DNA from: Liolophura sinensis
Lineage: Eukaryota > Mollusca > Polyplacophora > Chitonida > Chitonidae
Assembly: GCF_032854445.1 (NCBI RefSeq)
Contig: NC_088300.1
Location: 60,610,984 to 60,674,983, forward strand
Length of the DNA stretch: 64,000 nucleotides
Direction: 5' to 3'
The position numbers and the translations under genes are program-made. Of the stretch, positions 9,068 through 63,892 are shown piece by piece. Every line of letters starts with the position of its first letter. Within the stretch, counting starts at the first letter, position 1. A model generated the notes under the pieces. The model made no database searches. It was not told the origin of the DNA and saw only the letters and a program-made list of their open reading frames with translations.

Positions 9068-12000
9068 TTACTTTGTTTTTCCCAGCAGTCCTTGAGCAGT
9101 GTTGAAAAGGTTGATAGGACTGTTTCCGTCAGTCAGCAGTACACTCTCCAGACCAAGGGATTTCAGCATCTGTACCTGGAAAAGGCCACATGAAGAATTT
9201 GGAAGATAATATCTTGTATTTATTTATTTATTTGACTGGTGTTTTACGCCATACTTCAAGAATATTTCGCTTTATGACGTGGCCAGCATTATGGTGGGAG
9301 GAAACCAGGCAGAGCGTCTATATCTTGTAAGCTGAATGTCCATCTTAAATACATGTACGTACTTAACCTGCTCTTAGTAACCTCAAAGTTATCCTGTAAC
9401 AGACTGCTGGAACTAAACATTAGAGCATGGGCAACAGCTGAGCCGCAACTTCACAAACAGGGGCCAAGGGTTTCATAATCCTGAGTAAGTTCAACCCTGT
9501 GAAGATATGTCAACCTCAACACCTGTCTGCCACAAGGAAACACTAACAGGAGATGAACACCAACTGGTTAAAACCTGTTCGTTTCAGTCCTAAATCTGTA
9601 AAAACTGAAAGTTCTGACAAGCTAACACCATGTTACGATAAGTCGAACTTTCAAAGCTAGAAACTAAGCAATGTAAAGAACTACTAAAATCTGAATTAAG
9701 AAAAAATGGTTATGTTCAGTTATTGTACATTTATCTCTAGGGCCGCCAGAGAATCAAGGCAATATTTTTTACCTCCATTTCTGGTCCCGATGTGGCTATG
9801 GCAGAGATGGTGTCAGCTCCCAGGGTGTCCACTATGTCACTGAACTTCTTCACCTGTGATAAAATAAGTACACATTTTTAATATAGCTTAGTTATTTACA
9901 TTCAGATTTTCTTCACTGTATTCCAGGTGCCTTGCATGTTTAAAATGCACGACATAACACCAGATTACCCAAATTGAAGATGTATGTATGCTTGAGGTTT
10001 TATGTCATACTTAACAATTTTTCAGTCATATGACATCAAACCAATAGTTAAGAAGAGTTTCGTGATAGCAGACAAGACCTGAAGGAATTTATGACACTTT
10101 TTAATAATTAATTAGAATTAGTTGTGCCAAAAATTATTGTATAAACTGATGGACATACATGTAACAATGCCATACCTTAAAACAATCCATATGTATGTAT
10201 TTATTTATGTATGCTTTGCGATTTATGTTATACGTGTACTTAACAATTTTTCGATCATATGACGACGACGACGAGGTGTGTGTAGATGTACTGTGTCTTC
10301 TTGTAACAGGGAAAGTCCACGCCACCAAAGTGCTGCTGCCAATGAATTATCATGCTGAAGACACCAGACAAGACACCCCATCTAGTCACATTATATTGAC
10401 ACCGGGCCAACCAGTCCTATTTTATTACTGTAATCTTTCAGTGTTGAGTGCTAAGTGAGGCAGCAACAAGCACTGTTTTTAAAGTCTGGGTTTGATCCCA
10501 GGTCTCTCAACTTCTAAAACCCATAATGCAGGTTTTTTTAAGTACTTTAAAAAATGTTGAGCAGTGTACTTGATGTGAATACTTCATACATGTGTACCTC
10601 AGTCATCATGTCTGTGACTGGAAAAAACGAAAGTGCCTGGGGATAACCACAACTTGTTAGGTATCTGACAATAAACCTCCTCACCTTATGCGAGATCTAG
10701 TCAGCAACCCCATTAGTCAGAAAATTGGTCACCGTTCAGCACCTGAACTGAATGAGCCGGAAAGGCCTTTTAAATGAGAACACTTAACTCTTAACTTCTA
10801 CTCAACATCACACATGCAAGGCCCAGTTCTTCGAAAGTGCATTAGCTGATACTGGTATTAAGCCATATTCTATATTTAAATTTTAGCCAAACTCAGCAGA
10901 CAAATCAGTTCTCCAAAGTCAATAGCAGCAGTTTGACTTCACATTTAATATACTGGCGTACATTTTTTTTTAGGTTAAGTACAAAACTGAAGACTGGGCT
11001 TAAAGTCAAATCTGGTTCAAGTCTTAAATCAGTTTTAATCAGCCAAGCCCTGAAATATTTCTATATGCTGCATCCACTCTACATTTTCTACAGGTTGTTG
11101 TTGAACACACCACTTAACAGAGATACCTTGTGATCAAACCTCACCTCAATGCAAGATAATTCTCTGCATTTCTCCACTTCCAGATCATTCATTTCTTTTC
11201 TGTAGGAGAGTTCAGATGATCTCGTCTTAAACAGAATGAAAAAAATAATGAACAAGCATTTGGGGAGTACACTGAAACAGATGGGCTAAAAATGAGCTAC
11301 AACTGAGCCAGTTGGACAACAGCTGAGCCGCAACTGAGCCAGCTGGACAACTGAGCCACAACTGAGCCAGTTGGACAACAACTGAGCTGCAACTGAGCCA
11401 GCTGGACAACTGAGCCACAACTGAGCCAAATGGACATCAACTGAAGCCAGTCGGACAACAGCTGAGCCAGCTGGACAACAACTGATCCAGTTTGACAACA
11501 GCTGAGCCGCAACTGAACCAGCTGGACAACTGAGCCACAACTGAGCCAGTTGGACAACAACTGAGCCAATTGGACATCAACTGAAGCCAGTTGGACAACA
11601 GCTGAGCCAGTTGGACAACAACTAAGCCAGCTGGACAGTAACTGAGCCAGATGGACAACAAGTTTCAATTACAAAGCTAGCTGGACAACATCTGAGTCAG
11701 TTTGACAACAACTAAGCTGGCTGGACAACAACTGGGCCACAACTGAGCCAGTTGTACAACAACTGCATATATTAATGACATTACCACTGACAACTGAAAA
11801 CATGAGAAAGAAATTGTAAACAGCTATGATTTATATGCATTCAATGTGGAAACTGTTCAACAAAATTAAGAGATTTCACACTGAGAAGAACGTGTACAGA
11901 GGTGTGCTGACAAACAACTGAGCACTCACCAGATCTTGTATGCTTACAAACAACTGAGCACTCACCAGATCTTGTATGTTTACAAACAACTGAGCACTCA

Positions 12001-15000
12001 CCAGATCTTGTATGCTTACAAACAACTGAGCACTCACCAGATCTTGTATGCTTACAAACAACTGAGCACTCACCAGATCTTGTATGCTTACAAACAACTG
12101 AGCACTCACCAGATCTTGTATTTCCAGCTGTGAATAGTGCTGAATTTCCTCAGCCTGTGCCTTCAGTTTGGCAGCTGTAACAGAAGACACAAATTATTAT
12201 AATTATTTTTTTTGGCAATTGTTTTTTTACCTTCCTGATTTTCTGATATTTTTCTCTACATTCTCTAATAATAAATGCTAAAAATCACTTTTGATATGCC
12301 ATCATGGAGCTTCTATTTTGTCAGTAATTTGGCTATTAGTTTTTAAAGGTATAGGATTTAACAAGGGGGCGTTTTCATCCCACTGCCAACATTATAGTTC
12401 TTTTATCTATTCAGTTTTTTATTTGATTGGTGTTTCACACGGTACTCAAGAATATTTCACTTATATGCCAGCGGTCATCATTATGGTGGGAGGGAACAGG
12501 GCAGGGCATTATAGTTATTATGTCAGTACCTAACATTATACGCTTGTCTTAAGGCATATGTAGTGAGTTGCCTCAAGCTTCCCAGATGCCAAATCTGAGT
12601 TTGGCATAATAAGCACTGTCCACAGTGTCATAAGGAAATCCATTTTTAGACCAAGAAGCTATTCTGAAACATCTATTTTAATGACTGTGACTGAGGAAAG
12701 AGATGCAATGAACCAGGAGCCTCTCACCAATGCTGTCTCTGTGAGTTCAAGTCCAGCTCATGCTGGTTTCCTCTCCGGTCATACATGGGAAGGTCTGACA
12801 TTAACCTGTTGAGGGACATGGGTTTCCCCCAGGCTCTGCCCAGTTTCCTCACACCATAATGCTGGCCGCCGTCATATGAGTGAAATACTCTTGAGTACGG
12901 CGTAAAACACCAATCAAGTAAATAAATAAATAAATAAATAAATAATGGTCAAGAGTTATGATGGGCTGACAACAGAAAATTAGTTCAGTCAAATAAGCCA
13001 GCCAGGGTGCCTTCTCCACAGTACTAATGCTTGATAATCATCAACTGACTAGTAACTGGGAATGACACTTTATTTACACATACTCCTCTCTAATAACCTC
13101 CTTACCCTCGATCTCACTGGTGCACTCTATCCTTGTCTTCTCAGCCTCGGCTTGAGCTTCAGCTTTTGCTTGTCCCGTGGATTCCACAGCCGACGTCACA
13201 GCCCGCAACTCGCACAACGTGATTCTCGCCTTCTCTGCCTCTTTCTCATTGGCCAGTTTCTGGCGCTCAAGTTTTCCTCGGGCAGCTTGTTCCATTCTCT
13301 TGGCTTCATGTGTAGCAGCTGCCTCTATAGAACTTAAGAAATCAAGAACTTAAGGTTCAAAACCTTTCTAAAAATCAATAAACTGAAGAGAATCTTTTCA
13401 CACGAGACAGAATAAGTCACTCATAAAAGCAAATTCATTTTGGTGTCTGAGACCATTTTTTCCTCTCAGAACAACATACCCGTCATATCACTACCCAATA
13501 ACTTGTGGTATAAAGAAGTGGAAAATAATAGTATAAAAAAATTTTCAGTAATTCAGAAACTTACTTAGTTGCGATCTCAATGGCCATCTGAACAGACTTC
13601 ATCAAACTGTCTCTCATCTTGAGGTCTACTGGTTCTATACTCTGGATGTCAATACTTGTGACCACCTGGTAACAGAATACCATGGATTTTAATACATGTG
13701 ACCAACTGATAACAGAATAGTTCTGGATATCAATACTTGTGACCAAATGATAATAGATTACTCTGGAATTCAATACATGTGATCAACTGATAACAGAATA
13801 GTTCTGGATATCAATACTTGTGAAACCCTGGTAACAGATTACTCTGGATGTCAATACATGTGACCAACTGATAACAGAATAGTTCTGGACATCAATACTT
13901 GTGACCAAATGATAATAGATTACTCTGGAATTCAATACATGTGATCAACTGATAACAGAATAGTTCTGGATATCAATACTTGTGACCACCTGGTAACAGA
14001 TTACTCTGGATGTCAATACATGTGACCAACTGATAACAGAATAGTTCTGGACATCAATACTTGTGACCAAATGATAACAGATTACTCTGGATGTCAATAC
14101 ATGTGACCAACTGATAACAGAATAGTTCTGGACATCAATACTTGTGACCAAATGATAATAGATTACTCTGGATTTCAATACATGTGATCAACTGATTACA
14201 GAATAGTTCTGGATATCAATACTTGTGACCAAATGATAACAGATTACTCTGGATTTCTATACTTGAGATCAACTGATAAAAGAATACTGTGGATGTCGAT
14301 GCTTGTGTGATGGCCTGGTAAAAAAAATAGGTATCATTACTGTCATTACTCTGGATGTCAATACTTGTGACCAACCGATAACAGAATACTTCTGGATATC
14401 AATATTTGTAACCACCTGACAAGAGAATACTTCTGGGTATTAATACTTGTCAGCATATGACAACAAAATACTTCTGGATATCAATTCTTGTGACATAACA
14501 AATGATAAGAGAACACTCCATATAACATTACATGTACATACACGTATTACTGGCACTTACTGGCAAGCCCCATCAGACTTCAACCTACCATGTTGTTCAC
14601 ATCAAATCTGAGCTGAGGTTTAGGAGGATTTCCAAACACCGCAGAATGGATGATGTCAGAGGAGTGACGATGAAACTCATCAAATGTCACCTGGGCTACA
14701 GACGCTCGGATACAGCTGCCTGTCAATCAAATAAAAATAATCCAACCTTTGAATCAATAAGTTCAATCAGCACAGGTAAAGGAGCGGTGCCTGAATCAGA
14801 ATCTGATAATACTGAAAAACGGTTGTGAGAAATATGGCAATGGCCGACCTACTTCACAATGGAGATTACTGCAAGCTTTAACTAGATAATGTAGACTGAG
14901 TGAGTATGGCTATTACTACTGAAGTCATTAAACGCAACACACAAGCTGATAAATAATACAAGAAAATTTTAACCTCTTCCAAAAAAAATGTAAAGAAAAA

Positions 15001-15548
15001 ATACTCCCCATTATATTGCAGATGTGACCTTATACCATTGTATGTGCTTATGGGAAAAATATAAAACAGTAACTCTCCTCAGCCTCTCGCCGTGAGTTTG
15101 CTGAATATTGCTGACACAGAGTTAAATCATAATCATTCATTCATTCATTCACTCATTCATAATAACCTCTAAGATTGTCCATTTAAGGAATTCATTTAAC
15201 TGTTGTTGTTTTTTTTGTATCTAAATATACTGTGCATGTACATAAGCCACATGTAGCAACATCACCTGTTACAAACAATTCAATTGCATTTACCTATTTG
15301 TCTGCAAGCAAAGCCGATAAAATCCGGTATAGCAAATATTGCTAGCTCAGACTCCTTCTTCCCTCTTGTGAACTGTTGTTAATAAAAGAATGGAACAAGT
15401 ATTAAACCATAGCAGAAATTTTGTTTGTTTGGGAAAAAAAAGCATATGTATCACCTGTATACTGTGGAGGTGTAGGTGTATATAAAACAGAAGAAACACA
15501 CAGAGATAAACAACCCCAAGTATGGTTTATATATATGTATATATATAT

Positions 15549-15599
<51 letters not shown>

Positions 15600-18500
15600 T
15601 TATACAAATATTCAAATTTCTGTATTTTACCCAAAGTTTAGCATTTTTCAAGTGACATGGTTTGCTTGATTCTGATTGATTCATCCACCTTATAGGGCCA
15701 TGTAAGAGTTTGTTGTGAAGTTCAGAAATATCCAGACAAACTTAAAATTGTTGGCATCAAAAGTATCATTTTACTGCACTTATTGCCTCTGAAAGTGCAT
15801 TTTCACAAGCCAAACTTCAGGTGATTGACAGTACATGAAGGCTTACAAGTGCTGTTTCTCACCTCAAAATGATTATTGAAGGCTATCTGAAGTCTTAGTC
15901 TGGCATGGTCAGAAGTCTCCACCTAGATGGAAGGGAGGTAAATCTGGCAGGTTATACTAAATGAATACATATACTGTACTGTTCTACTCAAAATATCACT
16001 TTGACTGTAACCATTATGATATTACACAATGCACAAGTTATTTAAGAATTCAGCTGCTTGAATGTGAAATATGCCACACAAAAATGACACAGTAACATTT
16101 ATTGGACTCACATCCCCATAATAAAATTGATTTATTTATTTTATTTATTTGATTGGTGTTTTACGCCTTACTCAAGAATATTTCACTTATACAACGGCAG
16201 CCAGCATTATGGTTGGAGGAAACTGGCTTGGGGAAACCCACGACCATCCGCAGGTTGCTGGCAGACCTTCGGCCGGAGAAGAAGCCAACATGAGCTGGAC
16301 TTATACTCACAGCGACTGCACTCAACGAAACACTGTGGAAAGTTTGTTTCCTCATTTTCTCCCCAAGTATTATGACTCATCCCCTCCCCACCTCACCCCA
16401 CCCCAAGTAAAACTACTCTGTTTTCCAGGTAAAATAACTCATTTTCCCTTACGTAAAACTACTTTTTTCAATTAAAATGACTCATTTTTCCCCAAGTAAA
16501 ACTACTTTTGACTCCAAGTAACAATGGCTCTTATTTTCTCATGTAAAATAATTCAAACAAACAAATATATGTAATAACATATACATGTATGTCACCCTGC
16601 TGACCTCCAGACAAAAATGATCAGTAACAAGGGTATTTACAAACTCACTCGTAATGACTAATCACACATACCTCAATTATATCTGAAATAAAATCTGGCC
16701 CCAACATCAAGCATATAGATTTGAGGGCATTGGGCTTTTTGGGCTTCCCGGCTGAAACATAAAAATTCTGATTGATTGTCTTCATCACGCATGCATAACA
16801 GTCAATATGTAGTCAGCTAATGCATGTGGTAACACTCACTATAGAAAACATGAACAAAGGGGTTCTACCGTTTATTTATCTGTTTGTTCGAGATTTACTT
16901 TGTTCTCCAGAATATTTAATTACTACACGTATTTTGGGAAATATCGCTGAAAAAAAGCAACAGTCAAATGTGAACCAATGGAAGCTGGATTCAAGTCTGT
17001 GACCTAATTAGTCAAGACCCAATGAGCCGTGGCCAGATTTCAAACTTGAAGTTGCATTCACATTTGATTGGTCAATTCTGTAGCTATTATATAATGCATG
17101 CACTCATTTAAATATTACAGATTTGTCCATCACCAATGAGAAAGGTGGATAAGCGGGTAAAGGATTAAAATATTTATTTATTAAGAACTCTTGGTTTTGC
17201 TCCTTTCTATGAACTGTATGAACTTTCTATGTGCTTGTAACTCAATATTGTGAATGACCTTTACCCATGTAATTGATATGATAGGGTATAACTGACCACT
17301 AAGACTGAGGACACTGAAGTTTTCATGAGGTCCCAGGATAACCAGCTCTGGTCCAAACACAACCCGAGCGCTCTTTTGTTGGTAGTTATAAACCTGTACA
17401 GCCGTGTTGCCAGGGCAACGGTATGTCACCACGCGACTTTTGTTACGCCCCTGAAGCAAAAAGTCAATGGGAAATTATGATTTCCTTCACATCCACGATC
17501 AGGTAACACTGTAGTTTAATATAAAATATATTTGTCAAACTGTCAAGCACATGTACATATACAATGAGATAAGTTTCAGCATAAGAATGTATATTTGATA
17601 AAGCTGCACAAAGAAACAGGAACAGGTTCTATAGATGTTGTTTGAGTGGAAAAACTATTATGACATAATGAACTGTTCACATCAACAATAAAAGAGCCCA
17701 CCAGGGACAAAAACACCAGTGGCTAATTATTGTGACCACTGTGGTCCCGGTGGTGCTATTCTGCCCTAGCATTAAGTCAGGTGGTTTGTCAGGTGTCTTA
17801 CGTGTGCACGTGTGGTACTTTCTGCACTTTCGTCTTTTCTCTTTCATGGACAATACAATTTTTTTTTGTATTTTAGAAGCCACTCAACATGAAATAAGCC
17901 AAAAATGGAATTAAAATAAACCTGAAAAATCCACCTGAATATCTTGTCCAAAACATGCTTTCATCAACTTCCTGTTTGTGAAGATTTTTCAATCATGTAA
18001 GGATTTGAACAGGAAAATTTACCTGGGAAAGTCCACATTTTCCTCAGTTTAGATGTTTTTCAAGCTTTCTAAATATTTTTATGCCCTGCCCCGCCACAGA
18101 AAATAAGATTTATTCCATCTTTAAAACAACAATTACTTAAAATGATGTGTCCTTTGATCAAATATTCTTGAATAGGGACTACACCAAATATAAACACTTG
18201 CAAACAATTCCTTAGATTCATATCCTGCCAGATGTTTCAATTTTGTGTGGGAGTACAGTTGAATTGTTGAGAATGACGATTCCAGGCATGTGTGGGGGAA
18301 GGTTAGATGTGTATCATCTTAAAACACTGTGATGTTTCTTTTGTTTTTCAATACCTGGAGGATTCCTGGATCAATAGACTGCTCAAAATAGGCAACTTTT
18401 CGAATATCTTCTGAGCCAATCCCTCCTCCTTGTCTGGATATAACCAAAAAAAAACAACAGCACAGTTAGATAATTCTGATAGAGGAAATAAAATAAGAAA

Positions 18501-21500
18501 TGAAATAAAGGTAATGTGATATAGATTTTATTGTTACAAGACTTTCAGACTTTACCTGAGAAAAATAAAAAACAAACAAAATAAAAACAGATAAGCAGCT
18601 AGATTTAAAATCAAGAGTCATAAAAATACATCTTTTTTTGTTTGTTTGTTTGTTTGGGAATTCACATTACTTTGAACATTATTTTGTTGACATTACTGGC
18701 ACATTTATCATACTTACTCACTGAAATGCCATGACATAAGCAGATACCAGACATGCCCTACACAACATGCATGTACAGTATACTGACAAGCCAGTGAATA
18801 CTCTCCATTAAGACTAAAAAGGTGCATTCTGGGATTGTAATTTCCTCATCATGTCAGAGCATGAAAATCTGCCACTTTACCGGTTCAATTTTCCATGATG
18901 AGGGCTGCCACAGTCGTAAGCTTCAGGCTGAGTCGACATGCGATATACATTTTAGATTTATTTATACTGATTTGAGGCAGGGCAGAAATTAAGCCAGCAG
19001 TGTCTTTGCGGCTAATGGTAAAGTTGAGTCACTAAGATGTGCAGGCTTTGTTTTATTTATTTATTTATTTGATTGATGTTTTACACCGTGTGCAGGCTTT
19101 GTAGTTGGCCTTACAAAAATCCTCATGCATGGAATTACCAAGACTGTTCAAATTTGATAAAGTATTTTAGTCTGGGAAAATTGTTATTGCAGGTACAAAC
19201 CTGAGCAACTGTTCAACAAGATCAGAAAGAGGCTTTTCCCATAATTCCTCAAACTCTGTCAACATGTAAGAATCGGGACCGTGCACAGCTCGCACCTAAA
19301 AACAGGGGACATACATGCGCTAAACATCAGACTATACACACATATATTCTATACAAAAAGTAAATCAATCATACTCAAGTCTACTTCAGATAAAAAAATT
19401 GCAACTTGTTTCCAAGAAGAAAGACTTAATTCCAGATGAACAATGGCAACACAAGATTCACACCAAAATAAGCCTAACTGATAAAAGACTGGTGTAATAG
19501 CGCCTGGTAAAGCATAAGAGATCGCCACCAGTACAAACACCTTCATGCAACTGAGATTCTTAAAAATGAAGTTGACTGATCAGCGCGTGCCTTACCGCCC
19601 CTGTCTGGACATCTCTGACGTATACCCCCTCATTCTCACTCAGGGGAATCTTCTCTCTGCAATGAAGTATGCATTAGGGGGCAATTTATTATCATACAAA
19701 CACTAAAGGAAAGGACGGCTCAAAAGTGTTGATAAATCATCAATAAGAGTAGCATTCCTGAGAACTGTTACATTCACACTCTTTGTTTTCTTATAATATT
19801 TTCAAAGAATTACATATACATAGTCAAATGTATTAAGCAAACAAGTAAACATATAGCCTAAGGTTATACCAATCTTATTTTGTGTTTTACGAGCAAGCAG
19901 ATACTAAAAAATCCAAAATTGGAATAAAAAAAAACTGAAAATTCACTTTTCATTTTGTTTGATTTTGCTTGGTAATTTTATGATTTTCCTGTTTTTCAAA
20001 GCATTCCAATAATGTAAATATGTGTTTTTTAAGCTGTTGCTTTTTATATACTTTCCTCGGACATTGGAATAAGATTTATTCTGCTTGTAAAAAGGAATTT
20101 AAAATGAATGTGGCCAAACTGTAGACTTAGCTAACATGGTTCAACCCACAGTGTTCTCAGTTCTCCAGATAACAAGGACCTCATCACTAACATACATGTA
20201 CATCTATCTCTCATCAATGATGTTAAGCTCAATAGGGGGAATATATTCACAAGGACCTCATCACTAACATACATGTACATCTATCTCTCATCAATGATGT
20301 TAATCTCAATAGGGGGAATATATTCACAAGGACCTCATTACTTACATACATGTACATCTATCTCTCATCAATGATGTTAATCTCAATAGGGGGAATATAT
20401 TCACAAGGACCTCATCACTAACATACATGTACATCTATCTCTCATCAATGATGTTAAGCTCAATAGGGGGAATATATTCACAAGGACCTCATCAATTACA
20501 TACATGTACATCTATCTCTCATCAATGATGTTCAGCTCAAAGAGGGGAATATATTCACAAGGACCTCATCAATTACATACATGTACATCTATCTCTCATC
20601 AATGATGTTAAGCTCAATAGGGGAATATATTCACAAGGACCTCATCATTAACATACATGTACATCTATCTCTCATCAATGATGTTAATCTCAATAGGGGG
20701 AATATATTCACAAGGACCTCATCACTAACATACACGTACATCTATCTCTCATCAATGATGTTAAGCTCAATAGGGGGAATATATTCACAAGGACCTCATC
20801 AATTACATACATGTACATCTATCTCTCATCAATGATGTTAAGCTCAATAGGGGGAATATATTCACAAGGACCTCATCAATTACATACATGTACATCTATC
20901 TCTCATCAATGATGTTAATCTCAATAGGGGGAATATATTCACAAGGACCTCATTACTTACATACATGTGCATCTATCGCTCATCAATGATGTTAAGCTCA
21001 ATAGGGGAATATATTCACAAGGACCTCATCACTAACATACATGTACATCTATCTCTCATCAATGATGTTAAACTCAATAAGGGGAGTATATTCACAAGGA
21101 CCTCATCAATTACATACATGTACATCTATCTCCCATCAATGATGTTAAGCTCAATAGGGGGAATATATTCACAAGGACCTCATCACTTACATACATGTAC
21201 ATCTATCTCTCATCAATGATGTTAATCTCAATAGGGGGAATATATTCACAAGGACCTCATAACTTACATACATGTGCATCTATCTCTCATCAATGATGTT
21301 AAGCTCAATAGGGGGAATATATTCACAAGGACCTCATTACTTACATACATGTACATCTATCTCTCATCAATGATGTTAAGCTCAATAGGGGAATATATTC
21401 ACAAGGACCTCATCACTAACATACACGTACATCTATCTCTTATCAATGATGTTAAGCTCCATAAGAGGAATATATTCACAAGGACCTCATCACTTACATA

Positions 21501-24500
21501 CATGTACATCTATCTCTCATCAATGATGTTAAGCTCAATAGGGGGAATATATTCACAAGGACCTCATCACTAACATACATGTGCATCTATCTCTCACCAA
21601 TGATGTTAAGCTCCATAAGAGGAATATATTCACAAGGACCTCATCAGTAACATACATGTACATCTATCTCTCATCAATGATGTTAATCTCAACAGGGGGA
21701 ATATATTCACAAGGACCTTATCAGTAACACACACGTACATCTATCTCTCATCTCATCAATGATGTTAATCTCAATAGGGGGAATATATTCACAAGGACCT
21801 CATCACTAACATACATGTACATCTATCTCTCATCAATGATGTTAAGCTCAAAGAGGGGAATATATTCACAAGGACCTCATCACTAACATACATGTGCATC
21901 TATCTCTCCCCAATGATGTTAAGCTCAATAGGGGGAATATATTCACAAGGACCTCATCAATTACATACATGTACATCTATCTCTCATCAATGATGTTAAT
22001 CTCAATAGGGGGAATATATTCACAAGGACCTCATCACTTACATACATGTACATCTATCTCTTATCAATGATGTTAAGCTCAAAGAGGGGAATATATTCAC
22101 AAGGACCTCATCAATTACATACATGTACATCTATCTCTCATCAATGATGTTAATCTCAATAGGGGGAATATATTCACAAGGACCTCATCACTAACATACA
22201 TGTGCATCTATCTCTCACCAATGATGTTAAGCTCAATAGGGGGAATATATTCACAAGGACCTCATCAATTACATACATGTACATCTATCTCTCATCAATG
22301 ATGTTAATCTCAATAGGGGGAATATATTCACAAGGACCTCATCACTAACATACATGTACATCTATCTCTTATCAATGATGTTAAGCTCAAAGAGGGGAAT
22401 ATATTCACAAGGACCTCATCACTAACATACATGTGCATCTATCTCTCACCAATGATGTTAAGCTCAATAGGGGGAATATATTCACAAGGACCTCATCAAT
22501 TACATACATGTACATCTATCTCTCATCAATGATGTTAATCTCAACAGGGGGAATATATTCACAAGGACCTCATCACTTACATACATGTACATCTATCTCT
22601 CACCAATGATGTTAACCTCAATGGGGGAATATATTCACAAGGACCTCATCAATTACATACATGTACATCTATCTCTCACCAATGATGTTAAGCTCAATAG
22701 GGAGAATATATTCACAAGGACCTCATCACTTACACACATGTGCATCTATCTCTCACCAATGATGTTAAGCTCAATAGGGGGAATATATTCACAAGGACCT
22801 CATCAATTACATACATGTACATCTATCTCTCATCAATGATGTTAAGCTCAATAGGGAGAATATGTTCACAAGGACCTCATCACTTACACATATGTGCATC
22901 TATCTCTCATCAATGATGTTAAGCTCAATAGGGGGAATATATTCACAAGGACCTCATCAATTACATACATGTACATCTATCTCTCATCAATGATGTTAAC
23001 CTCAATGAGGGGATATATTCACAAGGACCTCATCACTAACATACCGGGATACATGTATATACACAAGGACTTCATCATGAACATACACTTTACCTCTGGT
23101 CAATGATGTTAACCTCAATAAGAGGATATATTCACAAGGACCTCATCACTAACATACATGTACCTCTTGTCAATGATGTTAACCTCAATTGGGGGGATAT
23201 ATTCACAAGGACCTCTAATCATCCATCTGTCACCTGGCTCTCTGTCTATTTTAACTGAGAGCAATGAACAATGAGAAACATTAATATTTTAATTCATTAC
23301 AATCGGATAGTCAAGCGTTTTGAGAATTTATACCTAAGAATGATGAAAAATGAGAAACTGTAAGAAACAAGGAGAAATATTACCATTTTATTCCATGGGA
23401 TTTTATGAGCTTTATAAGAATCAATACTGGAGCATTATTCTTACAATTTTCAAAGTACAACGATAACTGATTAAACTTCTCATCTGCCTAGAGGGTAGCC
23501 TTTAATTTCTCATTTACCAGAGAACAACCATGGTCATTAGAACAATTCAAATGATCTTGACATTTATTTATGAAGTAAAAACTGTTATCAGCATTTTATC
23601 AGAGACATTAATTACGAGAAAAAACATCCTGAAATGAACGTTCCCATCTTACCATCCTCAGATGTGTCCGTTATTGCATCCAAAGCTTGTACAACAACAG
23701 CCTCATTCTCTGACAACAGGTGGCAGTTCTCAACACCACTCAACAGTCGCTCACCTGAAACCGCACATCTTGTCAGTTACAGTAAAAATCTTTATTACTG
23801 TTCAGTGTAGACAAACAATATGGCATGTTTCAACGAGAGTTTTATAATGATAAAACTGGTAAAAGTTTCTTAAAGATAAACCAAAATTCTTCAGGGTGCT
23901 ATTTCATAAAATCAACTTCAAAGAGAAACCATTTGGGCACTTGACTCAAAAGGTTCATTTATCTCCCCTCGTCCTATATTCTCTACTCGCAACGATAAAG
24001 ACGCCAATAAGTTGAAGAATTCCAAATTGGGGACAAAACAAAAACAGATAAACACTACAAGTGAGGCCAATCTGCCTGCCAAGTCTCACCTGGGTGCAGA
24101 AAGAAGGTGGCCAATCCCTTACGCAGTTCTCTTTTCCCCAGCTGGGGTCGACCTTTCTTGTCTATGGGGTCCAACACAACGCAATACTGACCCCGACTTA
24201 ACACGGTCCTCTGCACGTGGCAAATCACTTCCTAAAGGGAGATAATCAGCACGCAGAGCATGCAATTACAACAATGCAACAAACTTATCTCAACAACACA
24301 GCCACCTGCTGTAGCACAACTGGGCTGTGCTAAAATTTGAAAGTATTAAATTATTGCATCTGGCTGTACGTGGATAAAGTACACAAAACTAAAAATGATG
24401 ACTTTTTGGAAATCAAACTTTTGATACTTCCTTTAGCATACAAAGTGCACTGCTCGGCTACATGAGGCTGAAATATACTTACTTCGCTATACTTTCTTTT

Positions 24501-27500
24501 ACTCAAGTCTAATGACTGGTGTTCATATTCAAAATTTTAATTTAACCAGCTGTTACTTGACAGACCTCCCACATTAAAAGCTGCAATACATGTAGGTGTA
24601 TTCATATAAAAAAAAGTCCGCTACTAAAAAATAAAATCACAGGTTTTCAAAGACTTTGAAAGTGGTCAATCCAACCAATGTAGTTTTGTCTCCAAAATGA
24701 AATTAAAAATGTGCATAAATTGCACTGAAAGTTGCTCTTTCATATGCAAAAAGGTTGAGGAATTAGGGTATGTAAAATATTAGTAATTTCATTATTTATG
24801 TCAAGGTAGTTCAATTTAATTCAAATGAAATAATTCACATACCACACCAATTTGTGGGTAATATACTTCTGTGTTTTTATTGGTGATGAGCCATTCATCT
24901 CCAGCAATTCTGAAAAGAAAACGGTCAAGACAGATTTAATAAAAAGAAAAATATGTACATAAATCAAAACATAAAAAAACACCATATATGTGTCCTTCAT
25001 AGATTTGTCATTTGTTTACAACATACATGTACATACAGAGAACAACATTATGTAATTCACATGTAGGTTGCATTCATTTCCCTAAAGAATTCACAGCATC
25101 AAGAAATGAAGTCATAAATTATAACGATAATATTTAAAAATACGCAGCGAAAGTCATGTATACAACATAAATATTAAGGCAATAATTTACAAAAATTTGC
25201 TGTGTTCATGCAACCATGATCATGAGTTAACAGTGCAAGGTCATTTCTAGAGCCATTTTAGTTGTGGAAAATGTTTGGGTGCCTGAAGCTAACAAGTAAT
25301 TTGAACAAAAATTTGAAGATTTTCCTCTAAAAAGCTAGTTTTCATGTACAAATTCTTTCATTCACAAACTTGAAAGCTCTCAGAAAGTTTTTTTTTTTCC
25401 ATAAAATTTCTTTATGGAAGATTATGTCACCTTTAAAATTTGGGTTCAGAACCTTCAATATTGTGCTGGACATGGCCCTGCAGGGGTCAGACAAACACAC
25501 GGGCATGTACCTGTCTTAATACAAGATACAATATCTGAAGGTGTCATCCAGTCCTGGCGGATAATAAAACAATCACAGCAATCTGTTAACATGTAGTCTT
25601 GGTACATGTGTCATTAAACATACAGACCAAATGAAGTGAAAGTGTAGCTGTTTCGAACTCTCTGACACGTGGAGAACAGGTGGATGAGCTAGCTGTTTAC
25701 CAGACTGGGGCCTATGTGACAGAGGGGGTTAGCATGCTCATGCAGCACAATGAACCAAGGGCCTCTCACCAATAAGGTCACCGTGAGTTCAAGTTCAGTT
25801 CATGCTGGTTTCGTCTCTAGTCATACCTGCGAAGGTCTGCCAGCAACCTATGGATGGTCATGGGTTTCCCCTGGGTTCTGCCCAGTTTCTTATGTCATAC
25901 CAGTGAAATGTTCTTTACATGTAGTCTGGCATAAAACACCAATCAAATAAATAAACAAATAGACAAATGTCTTTACCTGACATGATTCAGAGAGTCTGTA
26001 AGTGTTTGTGTAGCTCGGAGATGAAGCGCTGTCTCGTCTGTTAACACTGTTGCTTTCTCCACGGCAACCACCTGAAATGTATCACCTTCACAAGTCAATT
26101 CCAACCTAAAAGTACTGTATATATGAAAACTTCATGAAGATACTCTACTGTCTTATTAAATCCAGTATTTCACTGCAGTTTGCTGCACTAACACTGCTTT
26201 CAATTTAGTAATAATCTAGATTATATCTACTATAATTTTACTTTTCACTTAAAACTCAAAATGCTTCAATGCTGAACTATGGTAATTCAATTAATCTTTC
26301 ACAAATAAGAAGTCACACCTCTTCGTAGACCCCAGGAAGGTAGGCTCCAACTCGCCGCACTATCCATTCTTCTCCCGTTACCCGAGGACTGAACATGACA
26401 AAACGCAGACTGGATTACCAAAAAATCCAGTGTACCAAAAAAGCTAGTGTAATGAAAGAAAATTGTACACCAAAAGTGTAATACAACAATTGTACCCCAG
26501 TGGTGTAACGTAAGAAAATTGTAACCTAGTAGTGTCAGGTAAGAAAAGTGTACCCTTGTAGTGTATTGTAAAATGTTGTAACACACAGCATACCTCAATA
26601 TATAAACATTAAAAACCTGTGCACATACTGGATCCTTGTCCAGCTAGTCATTTACGTGCAAGAATAAGGAGACATAATGAGTTCACCCTTTGTACATGTC
26701 TTCATTTATTAAAAAGACTAAATTCATGAAAACTGGATAATACACAAATTCTGAATGGTTAAATTTTGACTGAGAGTAACTGAAAATTCCTAAAGATTCC
26801 TAATTTGGTCATAAGAATCTCAGTCATAAATGGGATAGAGGTAAAAAAAAACATCAGAAAACTGACTGTTTCGGTTTGTAATAAAAAGTGAACTATCTTG
26901 TATAATTTTTACACAGACCAACAGACCCCTAGCATGGGGACAATTTCTCTTGGGTTTTCAGATGCAATGTTACTTTCACCTCCTTTTGCACACAAAAAAA
27001 TCCTACATTTCTTATTTTCCAAACTTCTGCGTACATTTCTTATTTGTCTTTAGAAGTTTTGTCTGACTCCAGACTCTTCAGAATAATAAGGGGATTAATT
27101 CTAAAAGCATAAAATACCGACATACTTCCCGTGGCTATCACAGCAGTCTTGTAAGGCCCGCAGTTTTAAACTTTGTCCGGTCAGAATCACAACAGGTGGG
27201 ACATGCGACAAGATTTCCTGAAATCCAAGGTATGCAAATTCTACATTCCAAAAATACATACACCAGTATAGGAAGGATTGCAATGTAGTTAAATCTCTGC
27301 CTTAACTAGCGAAGCTGTACATTGGATTCTCCAGGCTCCCTCAAACATTTCCTCACAAATGAGGTCATTGTGAAAGGGTCAAAACAAATCTTGTATAGTT
27401 TTAAAAATTGATACAATGTTGTCTAGGCAAAGCAGATTTCCTTCAAACTTTTTAAAAAACACTCAATTTATCCAAGCATGAAGGTATTCATGAAGGCTCA

Positions 27501-30500
27501 TTTAAAATGAACATACACAAAACTGGCTCAGACTGGGCTCAAAACTGGCTCAGACTGGGCTCAAAACTGGCTCTTACTAGGCTCAAAACAGTATCAGACT
27601 GAGTTCAAAGCGGGCTCAGATGGCAAAAAAAAAAAAGGCTGTTACCAGGTTCAAAACTGGGTAAGACTAACATCACTCTTCAAGAGCTTTTTAATACAAT
27701 TGACAGAGTAAGATAAATTACACAGATCTGTCCTGAGACTCAATAACTGCAATCATCAGTGTTGATCAGCTGCCCGGTTAACCGCCTATCCCAAGCCAAT
27801 CATTTGCTTATTTACTTGACTTTTGTTCAACATCATACTCAAACACTGTCCACTTTTACAAGATAGTGATGAGTTTAATACATGGAGGAAGACACAGAGC
27901 TCATGATATACCATCAATCATCAGCAAGTTCCTGACAAACTTGTGATGAACAGATATGTACCCCATATTGGCAGAAGGCAGGTGGTCTTCAACTAACATT
28001 TCACAGTGCAAACAGCCTCAAATACATCGCTGATAACTCATGATCACCAAGGCCCCATGATAATTCATGATCGCCAAGGCCACATGATAACTTATGATCA
28101 CCAAGGCCACATGATAACTTATGATCGCCAAGGCCCCATGATAACTCATGATCGCCAAGGCCCCATGATAACTCATGATGGCCAAGGTCCCATGAACTGT
28201 GAGAGCAGGTGAATCCAAAAATCCCTGACTAACCGAAAACAATGCCCTATGAAGACAAACATATTCTTAGAAAATACCAGTCTCCTGTCAATCATCCTGA
28301 AGTCAAGCATGATCAGCCTGATGAGTACCTCATGAATATTCAGTAACTTACTGCCTGTGGGGTGGGGTAGTAAGTGAGTGGCCCCTCCAGCTGCCAGATG
28401 TCCCCAGCACATCTGGGGACCTCCTCATCCAGGTGGTCAAATCTTGCCCTAAGCCTCAGGCCATGGTTAGGCTTGATGACTGGCAGGGCTTTTATAGCCT
28501 TAGAGTATAGGTCAGGGCGGGGCTTGCTTTGGGGGTCAAGGGTCACACCCACTAAGTTTTCACCAGGGTACAGGGCAAACGGAACCTGATGTTAATAAAA
28601 GATGTATTTCAATGACTGTATAGAGTACACCAACAGATAACTGGAGTATATTTATGTAAGACTGGCAAATGGTCTAATAATTACTGCTTGCAATAATTAC
28701 TGGTGTATTTGACACTTTTATCTTTTTTAGTAATAATCGACAAAGCTATATTAACTAAGCATTTCCCATATAGGCTTTACAAGACAACTTCCTTGCTCTC
28801 CTGATGACAAAACTCAGTGCTACCGCTCAGACAGACAACAGTACACATATTTTGTACATTTTATCATTTGTATGAAAATATTGTGCTAATTTATTTAATG
28901 TAATGGCAAAAATTATTCACAGAAACATTTTACCATAAAGACATCAGACCCAGCTGTTGATACCTTACCCCGTGGAATTTAATCTCCAATTCACCGAGGC
29001 GTAAATCACAAGTTTTACCATGAATATAATTTCTGGGGAGAAAGCAAAGTAACATACATGTATACTGTAATTCTTCTCATTTTAAGACAGGTATTAGCAG
29101 CACGAAAAAAACAAAAATTACATTTTTTCTCATTTTTTTTTGGGGGGGGGGGGTGCGGGAGTTAAGGCCTGTTTAAAACTGTGCATTCCTGTTGCACTGC
29201 CATGTATACTGGTTAAATGATGCAGACCAGATATTCCACAAATCAGGGGAATTAAAGTAAATAGTAAGTTCTAGAAACATATTCCCACACTTGCAAAAGG
29301 GTATGAAATATAGATTCTTAATTTCTAAAAAGACCAAACAAGAAAAAAAAATACAAAGCAAATGTGAGATATGAAACCAAGAAATCTGCACCCAATTCAT
29401 TGCCATATTTATAAATAAGTTATGCTTTGCATATATGGCTAGAAGAGATCTCAAGAAATTACAGAAGCTGGAAATAAATACTGAATACTTGTAATTCATA
29501 GACCTACTTCATAGGGTCCTTTACAACACAGTACTGGCCAGGAGGGACAACCACCAAAGGGAGAGGGCCAGCCGTTAAACGCTCATTTGTCTGCAGCACC
29601 AGTGACTGGGGACCTTTCTCGAGGCGGGTGACATTCGAATTCTACAATGGAATTTGTTTGCTATTTTTGACCATACTGAAAAATATTTCACTCACATATG
29701 TAAATAACAGGAATCGTTTTTAAAGGCAAAAAAGTCACATTTTTTCAACTAAGTGAAAGGCACTTGGAACTATGGATTATACGACGGCCTTTTAAGGCCA
29801 CACTGTGACAAGTTGTCAGGTTTTTGCCACTCAACATACACAGACCTCTAGACTTCTGTATTCACACGCATATACATGGAGTTATGAATGCATTTGCCAA
29901 ATGGATCTTGAGAGAAGTTACGTGAGTGTTTTATAAAAAGATATGGATGTGAAAACAAAAAACTAACTAGAGGTTGATATAACATCATGTCTGACCAATC
30001 TTGTCTACCTCAGGCCAAGAACTCTTCAGCCGACCATCAGCTGACCCTCGGCCGACCGTCAGCAGATCATCAGTCCATGATCAATAAATACTTTAACACT
30101 AAATACACACGGATTTCCTGTAAACTGTTATTTCAAGCCTGTTATGAACATCGTGGATGTTTCGCAGCATATTTACTTACACACTAATTTCGCACAAAAT
30201 TCATGTTTTAATAGCTTACTGTTTGGGACCCCAACTGTTTTCATTCTGCCACCCATACACACAGTTCTCTCGATTACTGGGGATTCAAGTTTTTACCGTG
30301 CGTCTCCAGTACACAATATTTTGTTTTAATATAAATGACTTCACTAATTATTAAATAACAAGCCTACTTAGAGGCATTTATGGCAAAGTTATGTGCTGAC
30401 AAATATACATATTTGCAACACACTGCTTTCTCTGAAGACCACCACTTTGTTCATGACTGCTTTTCACAACCATGGCGGTGTTTCAGAATTTCGAAACGGC

Positions 30501-30875
30501 AACAAGTTGTTTGGCTTATCAGTAAATTTATCACAGTTTCATGTTGGATACAAAATTACACAGGAATATTTGACTTGGTGTGATGTGTGTCAGCCTACAT
30601 GCTTATATACGCTTAAAAAAACCTCTACTGCAAATGAATATCAGTACATCACACAAGGTCTACAATTTATAAAATTTGAACTGCTGACATGGATAAAGAT
30701 CAGCATGTATCTATTTTTCCATTTAATCTTGAGTTCCTAAATTGTATCCCCAATTTCACAATTGTCAATCCTATCGTTTATTAACTTTTATAAGTACAAA
30801 AACATGTTATAAGACAAGCGCAATCATATGTAGCCTTAATATACGCCTGAAGACATGCAATGTTTGCTAAATGCC

Positions 30876-30908
<33 letters not shown>

Positions 30909-31865
30909 CCATCCTAAATCATGAATAAAATCAACCTGTAACAGTAAAAAGAAATGTATTGGTGCAATTCCAATCCAATTTTTGCTGTTACTTTAGAATA
31001 GTCCAAATAATTACCTTTCACAAAATATCAGCCTCGTCTGTGCATGGGTTATGTTCAAAATCGGTAATAAAATACTAAAAATGTATAGAGAATGCCGCGC
31101 GAATGATACAAGGCCGACAGTGTATGTCTGCTGTCGTTCAAACTCCAGCAAGTGACTGAATGTCGCAAAATGATGACACACCATGGAAGAGCTGTCGGCG
31201 GCCGATGGTAGACTTAGGGTGATGGCAGGTTTGAACAGGATCCGGCTAGGGTCGGCGTATTATGGGCGTATAATGCACAGACCATCCAACAACATGGGCC
31301 ATAGGACTGATGGTCAGAATCCGGCAGTATTGTACATGTACCTCTCCATGTTATCTTTTAATCACCTTGTTGTCTGCTTGATGCTGCTTCCTGTCGGTCA
31401 ATTAAGTGTCCAGATATGCATGACCTCGATTATCAACAGTAAATGTGCGTTTTCATAGTTTAATCTTTTGCTTCCAAGAAATGAAGTACCGGTATAAAAG
31501 TACGGTACATAATTTACTCCTCCATTAAATATTATGCACTCTACTACATTAACAGCACTCTCACAACCCCTTTGCTCCACGATCAAAAAACACTGACAAT
31601 CACAAAAGTATACATATTCTCCAAAAAATATATATATATACCAGACTGCGCACTGGCCGTAGGAAAAAGTGTAAAACTGAAAGTTCGCAACTAATCCGTA
31701 ATTTTTTGTAAACAAGCCACTGCAGGTCGATGACATTTTCTGCAAAGCCAAAGCAAAAAAAGCATTTAAAACTATTTGACAGGAGAAACAAACCATTTTA
31801 CACACCAGATCTAAGACATGAACAAACTCAAATGGTGATATCCGAATGACACCTTCCGTGGACAT
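9068..31865 (-). CDS. MVP: Major vault protein (MVP), complete, 25 coding exons
   Basis: MVP forms the shell of the cytoplasmic vault ribonucleoprotein. Coding exons, 5' to 3' on -: 31865-31806, 29641-29508, 29032-28969, 28585-28352, 27217-27126, 26388-26319, 26071-25977, 24909-24843, 24231-24090, 23754-23653, 23254-23164, 19656-19596, 19295-19201, 18433-18355, 17450-17297, 16751-16672, 15922-15863, 15372-15294, 14719-14589, 13665-13565, 13332-13106, 12174-12110, 11225-11145, 9853-9773, 9175-9068. They total 2553 nt (850 residues, close to the ~890 usual), with all phases agreeing. Start is [22 protein letters not shown] repeats ([44 protein letters not shown]) fill residues ~1-460. The shoulder domain ([24 protein letters not shown]) spans ~463-640. 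The cap helix ([30 protein letters not shown]) spans ~650-790, then the cap end ([25 protein letters not shown]). Three arrays copy its splice junctions. Exon 11's acceptor is the least certain border. Confidence 0.96.
9217..9316 (-). mobile_element. SINE family A, 3' part
   Basis: Reverse-oriented tail of family A in MVP intron 24: TATT-rich tail, then gactggtgttttacgcc, caagaatatttcgct and cagcattatggtgggagg. The tRNA head is missing. Confidence 0.85.
9990..10048 (-). mobile_element. SINE family B tail fragment
   Basis: Matches the low-coordinate (3') end of family B: tcatacttaacaatttttc followed by agtcatatgac. It lies in MVP intron 23. Confidence 0.5.
10195..10530 (-). mobile_element. 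SINE family B, near-complete
   Basis: Nearly full-length copy in MVP intron 23. It shares gtacttaacaatttttcg, 'catatgacgacga', 'gaagacaccagacaag', 'tagtcacattatattgacac', gccaaccagtcc and tttgatcccaggtctctc with the copies at 50.5 and 63.6 kb. The short + ORF here is SINE sequence, not a gene. Confidence 0.75.
11280..11765. repeat. Composite minisatellite, MVP intron 22
   Basis: An array of interleaved ~20-bp (ctgagccagttggacaacaa) and ~11-bp (ctgagccacaa) units, roughly 20 copies in all. It lies 55 bp from the acceptor of MVP exon 23. The minus strand is open in several frames (Leu/Ser/Cys-rich) only because the unit lacks stops. A single 19-bp match to the unit lies in intron 24 at 9432-9450. 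Confidence 0.9.
11905..12120 (-). repeat. 36-bp array copying the MVP exon 22 donor
   Basis: Six head-to-tail copies of a 36-bp unit. Read on -, each is ATACAAGATCTG followed by GTGAGT and intron sequence. The copy at 12084-12120 is the live end of exon 22 (IQDL, donor at 12109). The other donors fall 36 bp apart at about 12073, 12037, 12001, 11965 and 11929. The unit is 12 codons ([12 protein letters not shown]) and open in the MVP frame, so use of a distal donor would insert 12-residue multiples without a frameshift. Confidence 0.93.
12416..12510 (-). mobile_element. SINE family A, 3' part
   Basis: Reverse-oriented tail fragment in MVP intron 21: atttgattggtgtttcacac, caagaatatttcactt and atcattatggtgggaggga. 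Confidence 0.8.
12705..12945 (+). mobile_element. SINE family A, lacking only the box A head
   Basis: Body from gcaatgaaccaggagcctc through box B (gttcaagtcc), ctctccggtc, ggtttcccccaggctctgcc and ccataatgctggccgcc to the tail gtacggcgtaaaacacc and an (AAAT)n run. It lies in MVP intron 21. Confidence 0.9.
13625..14510 (-). repeat. 40/41-bp array copying the MVP exon 20 acceptor
   Basis: About 20 copies of alternating 40- and 41-bp units (an ~81-bp dimer), e.g. 'ctggatgtcaatac' plus 'atgtgaccaactgataacag'. On - the unit is an acceptor-like CTGTTATCAG followed by the first ~25 coding bases of exon 20 (VVTSIDIQ). The lowest-coordinate copy, 13640-13680, is the live acceptor of exon 20. The array fills most of intron 19, and copies decay toward 14500. 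Confidence 0.92.
15528..15600. repeat. (TA)n microsatellite
   Basis: A run of TA dinucleotides interrupted by ggtt, in MVP intron 17. It creates spurious Ile/Tyr ORFs on both strands. Confidence 0.97.
16129..16322 (-). mobile_element. SINE family A
   Basis: Reverse-oriented copy with tail, body (cagcattatggttggagg, cacgaccatccgcagg, ggcagaccttcggccgg, acatgagctggact) and box B region. It is truncated in the head. It lies in MVP intron 16. Confidence 0.9.
19051..19092 (-). mobile_element. SINE family A tail fragment
   Basis: About 40 bp only: (TTTA)n then gattgatgttttacaccg. It lies in MVP intron 13. Confidence 0.6.
20171..23217 (-). repeat. 77-bp satellite copying the 3' half of MVP exon 11
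   Basis: About 39 tandem copies of a 76-78-bp unit fill most of MVP intron 11. Read on -, each holds the last ~50 coding bases of exon 11 ([14 protein letters not shown]) followed by the splice-site region and ~25 bp of intron. The highest-coordinate copy (23164-23217) is the live exon, with donor GTACAT at 23163. Most copies differ at the junction (GAGAGATAGAT before GTACAT), which puts TAG in frame and moves the GT by 6 bp. The exon's 5' half and acceptor are not repeated. Copies nearest the exon (23040-23160) are most exon-like. Confidence 0.95.
25706..25955 (+). mobile_element. SINE family A, full length but diverged
   Basis: Runs from ggggcctatgtgac through a box B region (gagttcaagttcag) and body to the tail ctggcataaaacacc and (AAAT)n. 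It ends about 20 bp from MVP exon 7 (25977), within intron 7 next to the donor, and is inserted in antisense relative to the gene. Confidence 0.85.
26400..26590. repeat. Degenerate ~33-bp tandem repeat
   Basis: Four to five diverged copies around the core 'gtgtaa.gtaagaaaattgta' begin ~12 bp upstream of MVP exon 6. It contains no exon sequence. Confidence 0.7.
27520..27650. repeat. ~22-bp tandem repeat, MVP intron 4
   Basis: Five to six copies of gggctcaaaactggctcaga and variants. Confidence 0.8.
28030..28195. repeat. 27-bp tandem repeat, MVP intron 4
   Basis: Six copies of a 27-bp unit (catgataactcatgatcgcc plus aaggccc). The unit is a multiple of three with no stops in one frame of each strand, so both strands show a false ORF. 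It shows no link to the nearby exon 4 donor at 28351. Confidence 0.9.
29642..31805 (-). other. MVP intron 1
   Basis: The largest intron of MVP without a satellite. It holds a TATA-rich microsatellite at about 30879-30908 and no SINE that I can identify. No exon of another gene was recognised. Confidence 0.6.
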
Positions 31866-45810: not shown

Positions 45811-53440
<7,630 letters not shown>

Positions 53441-63562: not shown

Positions 63563-63892
63563 GGGGTTTAACGTCGTACTTAACAAGTTTTCAGTCATAT
63601 GACGACGAGAATTCATAAGGTGTGTATACATATACTGTGTGTTCTTATGACAGCGCGAATGCATGGAGCCAAAACGCTGGCGCCACTGAAGTATCACACC
63701 GAACACCTGGTCACATTATACTGACACCTGGCTATCCAGTCATGTTTCCTTGCTCTAACCTCTCAGTGCTGAATACCAAGCAAGGCAGCAGTAAGCACCT
63801 TTTTCAAAGGCTTTGGTATGACCTCACCCGTGTTTGATCCCGGGTCTCTCGCCTTCGATGTGGACGATCTAACCATTAGACCACCGAAGCGG
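63563..63892 (-). mobile_element. SINE family B, full length
   Basis: The best copy of the family. On - the head reads as a tRNA-like sequence: box A 'tggtctaatggttaga' and box B 'gggatcaaac' near 63830-63885. The body contains gtgtcagtataatgtgacca, and the tail is gttaagtacgacgttaaacc. The + ORF here is SINE sequence. Confidence 0.8.

What the first reader, a model, noticed from the sequence alone, without database searches (positions are those of the whole stretch)
11145..23254. Three MVP minisatellites are each built from the gene's own splice junctions
Exon 11 (3' half plus donor, 77 bp x ~39), exon 20 (acceptor plus first ~25 coding bases, 40/41 bp x ~20) and exon 22 (last ~12 coding bases plus donor, 36 bp x 6) each run directly into a tandem array made of that junction. 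The three arrays are unrelated in sequence, so this happened at least three times in one gene. Nearly all other arrays in the window lack exon sequence. That suggests a local mechanism, such as slippage or repair at exon borders, or conversion between copies and the live exon. It could also be selection for variable splicing of the vault shell gene.
Basis: partly seen in the sequence, partly recalled or inferred. Interest (0 to 1): 0.85.

Follow-up and report, generated by a model that had tools for sequence, protein, structure and literature searches.

The report
Splice-junction minisatellites throughout a chiton genome
Three introns of a chiton's vault-protein gene hold long tandem repeats copied from the gene's own splice junctions, and many other genes sampled from this animal show the same, so it is not special to this gene but looks like a general habit of its genome.

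Summary
The major vault protein gene (MVP; 25 exons, minus strand, 31865 to 9068, intact reading frame) has three arrays that begin inside an exon and repeat its splice junction: exon 11 donor (about 39 units), exon 20 acceptor (about 20) and exon 22 donor (6). They are unrelated in sequence.

It is not MVP-specific. In 29 loci of other conserved genes from the same genome (250,100 bp, chosen by exon hits only) the same kind recurs. Of 62 arrays, 10 span a detected splice junction, against 2.4 to 2.8 expected from uniform or GC-matched seeding (P about 1e-4). With five more found by eye and checked by alignment, at least 15 of 62 do, in 13 of 29 loci. MVP's rate (3 of 48 junctions) does not differ from theirs (10 of 262; Fisher P 0.43).

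Assembly statistics identify the genome as the chiton Liolophura sinensis. Such repeats have a name, 'mirages', from amphioxus. I file these as mirages in a mollusc, with a measured excess at junctions. Best mechanism: tandem duplications across a junction are tolerated because the outermost copy still splices; junctions also seed arrays three to four times more often than other intron sites, cause unknown. No RNA or population data were available.

The parts
9068..31865 (-). Major vault protein gene, 25 exons, intact 849-aa reading frame
   Evidence: exon chain, GT-AG sites; match to vertebrate MVP, E 8e-246; exon 1 (31865-31806) read from the sequence printed
23164..23254 (-). Exon 11, live copy; last 52 bases lie in the array
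20172..23215 (-). Exon-11 donor array: 77-bp units (about 37) plus about two divergent 71-72-bp units next to the exon; 384-bp higher-order period
   Evidence: altered junction in most units
13565..13665 (-). Exon 20, live copy; first 25 bases lie in the array
13641..14307 (-). Exon-20 acceptor array, about 41-bp units (16 parsed, the live one included), AG kept in 10 of 15 decoy copies
14350..14491 (-). Detached further piece of the exon-20 acceptor array (3.5 units)
   Evidence: 81% match to the exon-20 unit
12110..12174 (-). Exon 22, live copy; last 12 bases lie in the array
11905..12121 (-). Exon-22 donor array, 36 bp x 6, GT kept in 5 of 5 decoy copies, open in the MVP frame ([12 protein letters not shown] per extra copy)

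Best explanation
These are 'mirage' minisatellites: tandem arrays whose founding unit was a short segment across a splice junction. A first tandem duplication (slippage or microhomology-mediated repair) copied the exon edge together with the splice signal. The outermost copy still makes the right exon, so the duplication costs little, and the inner copies become intron and then expand by unequal exchange or slippage. In this chiton genome the process is general. Junctions found arrays about three to four times more often than other intron sites, so besides tolerance there is a bias toward exon borders of unknown cause. Shown: the anatomy, the intact gene, the recurrence in other genes, the excess over uniform and GC-matched placement. 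Inferred: the duplication mechanism, neutrality, and that splicing uses the outermost site.
For: Anatomy and intact MVP frame. Recurrence: 10 of 62 arrays in 29 loci span a detected junction, expected 2.42 (uniform, P 1.5e-4) or 2.79 (GC-matched, P 1e-4); over four score and two overlap limits P stays between 5e-5 and 3e-3. With arrays collapsed to one unit, 13 of 72 (MVP included) against 4.0 (Poisson P 3e-4), with no excess at 0-50, 50-150 or 150-500 bp. Nine arrays, among them the five found by eye, were aligned to the live junction: the match crosses the junction with 8 to 30 exon bases in each and scores above all 200 shuffles. Strand test that needs no exon annotation: donor scores >= 8 in 11 of 72 units on the sense strand and 2 of 72 antisense; acceptor scores >= 6 in 14 and 4. 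Of ten exon peptides beside such arrays, 8 match their Pfam family above its cut-off; L012 (E 4e-7) and L005 (E 0.047) match below it. Decoy GT or AG kept in 105 of 115 copies in ten arrays, exon 11 left out, so decoys are not being removed.
Against: No RNA: use of the outermost site is inferred. One genome; four gene families, all conserved. Exon edges were set by a script and some were wrong: one call was dropped for that, and in L026 the edge lies about a unit off though the array does cross the junction. If L026 and the 2-copy L017 were dropped too, 8 of 62 would remain (Poisson P 0.004 to 0.008). The fresh replication set was too small (5 arrays in 4 loci, 1 junction array, expected 0.28). 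The score model was trained on MVP introns, and 10 of the 72 units are MVP's. Acceptor scores show no overall shift (36 against 33, Wilcoxon P 0.84), only an excess of high ones; for the 57 arrays not touching a detected exon the donor difference is weak (sign P 0.11, Wilcoxon P 0.034). The cause of the excess is unknown; a like share among arrays of at most 3.5 copies (4 of 19) and larger ones (9 of 53; Fisher P 0.73) only hints at a bias at birth.
Confidence: 0.82

Rival explanations
1. Plain chance: minisatellites start anywhere in introns, and some seeds fall on junctions; MVP simply drew three.
For: For MVP alone, 3 of 10 against 0.77 expected is only P 0.034 and the gene was picked for it. 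Most arrays in the sample do not span a detected junction (52 of 62 by the automatic count).
Against: 10 of 62 in other genes against 2.4 to 2.8 (P about 1e-4); strand asymmetry of strong splice signals; the excess is confined to the junction itself.
Confidence: 0.1
2. Selection for spare or variable splice sites: the extra donors and acceptors are used, either to secure splicing or to give variants (in exon 22, in-frame additions of 12 residues to MVP).
For: Decoy signals are well kept (105 of 115 without exon 11); the rank of the core dinucleotide among all dinucleotides of the unit averages 0.63, P 0.067, a figure that includes the exon-11 array, whose units were parsed out of register. The exon-22 array is open in frame through all six units. 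The human IFI6 minisatellite is cited as giving used donor sites (passage).
Against: No clear preference for unit lengths divisible by three (5 of 11). The MVP protein built with the first donor aligns across the exon-22/23 border with vertebrate MVP without a gap, which shows that this reading fits, not that the others are unused. In amphioxus, mirages are reported not to disturb regular splicing (passages).
Confidence: 0.08
3. Assembly artefact (collapsed or spurious repeats).
For: 14-fold HiFi coverage is modest (PMC11068029, passages); contig C99 holds seven COX1 copies about 15.5 kb apart, so some odd joins exist.
Against: HiFi reads average 8.3 kb, longer than the 3-kb exon-11 array; units differ from one another in nearly all arrays parsed, least in exon 22; the kind recurs in 13 of 29 loci.
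Confidence: 0.02

Closest known systems
Mirages of amphioxus (Adh3, globins BflGb6 and BflGb9, others; PMC3087553 passages, PMC3902484 passage)
   Different: Here a mollusc (chiton). Frequency and excess over chance are measured in 29 loci plus MVP. Unit numbers reach about 40. Splicing and polymorphism are not tested here.
IFI6 (6-16) minisatellite of humans, said to provide multiple splice donor sites (title of Turri 1995 in a reference list and a passage, both in PMC4526556)
   Same: A minisatellite at an exon end whose units carry splice donors.
   Different: There two downstream units are said to be used as donors; here use is unknown.
Intron gain by tandem duplication (Rogers model, discussed in PMC3087553; human tandem repeats at exon-intron boundaries in PMC2812944; passages of both)
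   Same: Tandem duplication that copies splice signals.
   Different: No new intron is shown here; the introns carrying the arrays were not compared with other species.
Ordinary intronic minisatellites
   Same: Unit lengths, copy numbers, TRF match (median 92% for junction arrays, 87% for others, P 0.29).
   Different: The founding unit includes coding sequence and a splice signal.

Membership tests
Mirage (exon-intron boundary minisatellite) | Tandem units that contain exon sequence, the boundary and intron sequence | tested here: met
   for the three MVP arrays; for others. In the exon-11 array the junction is altered in most units.
Mirage (exon-intron boundary minisatellite) | An authentic junction remains at the array edge and the gene stays intact | tested here: met
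   MVP frame intact with GT or AG at the edges of all three arrays; for other genes only single exons were checked
Mirage (exon-intron boundary minisatellite) | Many copies carry AG or GT splice signals | tested here: met
   105 of 115 decoy copies in 10 arrays, exon-11 array left out because its units were parsed out of register
Mirage (exon-intron boundary minisatellite) | Regular splicing is not disturbed | not testable with these tools
   no RNA data
Mirage (exon-intron boundary minisatellite) | Copy number varies between alleles or somatically | not testable with these tools
   one assembly, no reads
Splice-donor minisatellite in use (IFI6 type) | Inner copies are used as splice sites | not testable with these tools
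   no RNA data; the exon-22 array is open in frame, which permits but does not show it
Intron gain by tandem duplication | A new intron at a non-conserved position bounded by the duplicated segment | not tested
   no intron positions of related species were compared

The most novel reading that the evidence does not exclude
Exon-intron junctions, perhaps above all donor sides, are a preferred birthplace of minisatellites throughout this genome, through a mutational process tied to exon borders (for example breakage or repair linked to transcription or to the composition or nucleosome step at the border), so that about a quarter of intronic minisatellites in genes are copied splice junctions and introns fill with intact decoy splice sites.
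Probability: 0.4. Interest if true: 0.72.

Novelty: new member of a known kind. Interest (0 to 1): 0.52.

Why it matters
Mirages were described gene by gene in amphioxus, with the suggestion that they might be more general in cephalochordates. Finding them in a mollusc, in 13 of 29 sampled loci besides MVP and three to four times above chance placement, makes two open questions testable: why exon borders seed minisatellites, and how the spliceosome picks the right one among up to dozens of near-identical sites. They are also natural raw material for intron gain and for splice variation between individuals.

Tried and rejected
MVP-specific mechanism: rejected, because other genes show a like rate (Fisher P 0.43 per junction, 0.37 per array).

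Dispersed satellite or mobile origin of the 77-bp unit: no match outside the locus.

One automatic junction call, L004 7173-8343, was dropped: the script had set the exon end too far inside the intron; I corrected the edge before the counts, so 11 became 10.

Donor preference: 9 donors and 4 acceptors in the automatic set (P 0.27); 15 and 4 with those found by eye, L033 included (P 0.02), but several of these were noticed through donor scores, so I do not claim it.

Special conservation of decoy signals: P 0.067 including the mis-registered exon-11 array; not claimed.

By-eye inspection covered 29 views (20, 9, one of the latter outside the 29 loci), not all 62 arrays, so 15 of 62 is a floor. 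L013 holds two more arrays that look like the same unit, not counted again. L015, L008 and L003, seen, were not counted.

Replication with 4 fresh loci was too small (5 arrays); its one junction array (L033) had its exon edge mis-set by the script but aligns across the junction.

Orthologue comparison was not done: the collections offered hold prokaryotes, viruses, plasmids and metagenomes, and I did not search them for MVP. Literature: eight searches on the repeats (listings) led to the name 'mirage' only in amphioxus papers, and to human cases of repeats at exon ends (IFI6, PMC2812944); this does not show absence elsewhere. Passages of PMC4039745, PMC3862624 and PMC12783039 held nothing on repeats that span splice junctions.

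Full report
What was claimed and what is there. The window carries the major vault protein (MVP) gene on the minus strand. I chained 25 exons with GT-AG splice sites; the 849-residue product is open throughout and matches vertebrate MVP end to end (E 8e-246). Three arrays found by TRF start inside exons: the exon-11 donor side (52 exon bases; 77-bp units at 20172-23044 and about two 71-72-bp units up to 23215), the exon-20 acceptor side (25 exon bases; 13641-14307 with a detached piece at 14350-14491) and the exon-22 donor side (12 exon bases; 36 bp x 6 at 11905-12121). Seven main array units of the window do not match one another, and a query from the 77-bp array matched only here in the genome. 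One correction: in the exon-11 array the junction is mostly changed, with GATGTACAT 26 times against the live form GAGGTACAT once.

Is it more than chance in MVP? If founding units fall uniformly in the gene, 0.77 of its 10 arrays should span a junction; 3 do (P 0.034). For a gene picked because of this, that is weak.

Is it special to MVP? No. I searched the genome with four protein families, chose 29 stretches by exon hits alone, before seeing any repeats, and fetched them (250,100 bp, 131 exon hits). TRF gave 62 arrays (period at least 17, score at least 80). An automatic rule (array overlaps exon and intron by at least 8 bases) called 11. One call came from a wrong exon edge and was removed, leaving 10, against 2.42 expected (P 1.5e-4), or 2.79 when placement is matched for GC (P 1e-4); over four score limits and two overlap limits P stays between 5e-5 and 3e-3. 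By eye the pattern is plain, for instance a chaperonin exon ending KAADK|GTGAGT followed by copies of that end (L001), and a myosin exon preceded by 43 units of its acceptor, the live one included (L011). Five more arrays (L005, L012, L013, L020, L022 6568-7000) match the junction of an exon that was absent from the hit list or, in L013, about 60 bp away. Alignment to the live junction bears out these five, and L014b, L017, L026 and L033: each match crosses the junction and beats 200 shuffles. So at least 15 of 62 arrays in 13 of 29 loci are of this kind. Of ten exon peptides beside such arrays, 8 match their Pfam family above its cut-off and two below it (L012, E 4e-7; L005, E 0.047). MVP does not differ from these genes (3 of 48 against 10 of 262 junctions, Fisher P 0.43). 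If the 2-copy L017 and L026, whose exon edge the script misplaced, were dropped, 8 of 62 would remain (Poisson P 0.004 to 0.008). Four fresh loci added only 5 arrays, of which 1 is a junction array (expected 0.28), too few to test anything.

A second test needs no exon annotation. In the 72 array units (10 of them MVP's), strong donor-like sites (score at least 8, model trained on the 24 MVP introns) occur in 11 on the sense strand and 2 on the antisense strand; acceptor-like sites at 6 or more in 14 and 4. Over all units the donor difference is significant (Wilcoxon P 0.002), the acceptor difference is not (P 0.84). For the 57 arrays that touch no detected exon the donor difference is weak (sign P 0.11, Wilcoxon P 0.034).

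Where exactly is the excess? With arrays collapsed to one unit, 13 of 72 span a junction against 4.0 expected, while distances of 0-50, 50-150, 150-500 and above 500 bp show 5, 9, 21 and 24 against 7.1, 9.9, 20.6 and 30.5. The excess lies on the junction, not near exons in general. The share is alike among arrays of at most 3.5 copies (4 of 19) and larger ones (9 of 53; P 0.73), which hints at a bias when arrays are born, with little power.

How it probably works. A short tandem duplication across a junction leaves one intact junction at the outer edge, so it is tolerated, unlike most duplications inside an exon. Inner copies become intron and expand. Splice signals in them are kept about as well as the rest of the unit: GT or AG intact in 105 of 115 decoy copies in ten arrays, exon 11 left out because its units were parsed out of register. 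Identity to the live copy falls with distance in L001 and L004a (r -0.81, -0.76), less in exon 22 and L011 (-0.58, -0.42), and hardly in six others, so renewal from the live exon is not general. Unit lengths show no clear preference for multiples of three (5 of 11 as parsed), which speaks against selection for variant proteins; the exon-22 array is open in frame ([12 protein letters not shown] per copy). Why junctions are favoured is not known.

Which animal? The assembly length, 632 scaffolds and scaffold lengths (longest 96,433,062; 60,359,117; 58,388,612 and others; contig lengths) agree with the chiton genome published as Liolophura japonica (PMC11068029, passages), renamed L. sinensis in a correction (PMC12441733, whole text). 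Two scaffolds differ by a few thousand bases from the printed lengths. The mitochondrial gene order (genes named by eye) fits a chiton as I recall it. The assembly rests on HiFi reads averaging 8.3 kb at 14-fold coverage.

What is known. [quoted passage not shown] they are reported in Adh3 and in globin genes, with regular splicing said to be undisturbed and with length instability (PMC3087553, passages), and likened to duplications in PGBD5 and reported in troponin C (PMC3902484, passage). The 2002 Adh paper itself is not held. The human IFI6 minisatellite is cited as providing splice donors (PMC4526556, passages). A comparative chiton genome paper has no match for 'tandem repeat', 'minisatellite' or 'satellite' in its main text (PMC12005716). 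I therefore file these arrays as mirages. New here, as far as my eight searches show, are the phylum and the measured excess.

Noticed in passing
G000 contig C99 (L031, L032): A 108,685-bp contig holds seven COX1 matches about 15.5 kb apart (one of them partial), so it looks like a head-to-tail multimer of the mitochondrial genome; probably an assembly artefact.
   Followed up: partly
window 45978-49401: 85-bp x 41 array of high GC (about 0.48-0.49); 53 bases of its unit match window 10353-10403 (79%) and 44 match 63704-63747 (77%), so it may derive from a dispersed element rather than an exon.
   Followed up: partly
window 20172-23044: The exon-11 array also fits a higher-order period of 384 bp (about five 77-bp units).
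   Followed up: no
L029 6-242: 79-bp x 3 array that begins near the end of an aldehyde dehydrogenase reading frame, around the stop codon rather than a splice site (by eye).
   Followed up: no
window 12419-12945 and 16130-16330: Copies of a dispersed repeat, one ending in TAAATAAATAAA, lie in MVP introns; it looks like a molluscan SINE (recalled, not tested).
   Followed up: no
L032, about 4550-4970 (C99:12350-12770): Long simple-repeat tract in the mitochondrial genome next to COX3.
   Followed up: no
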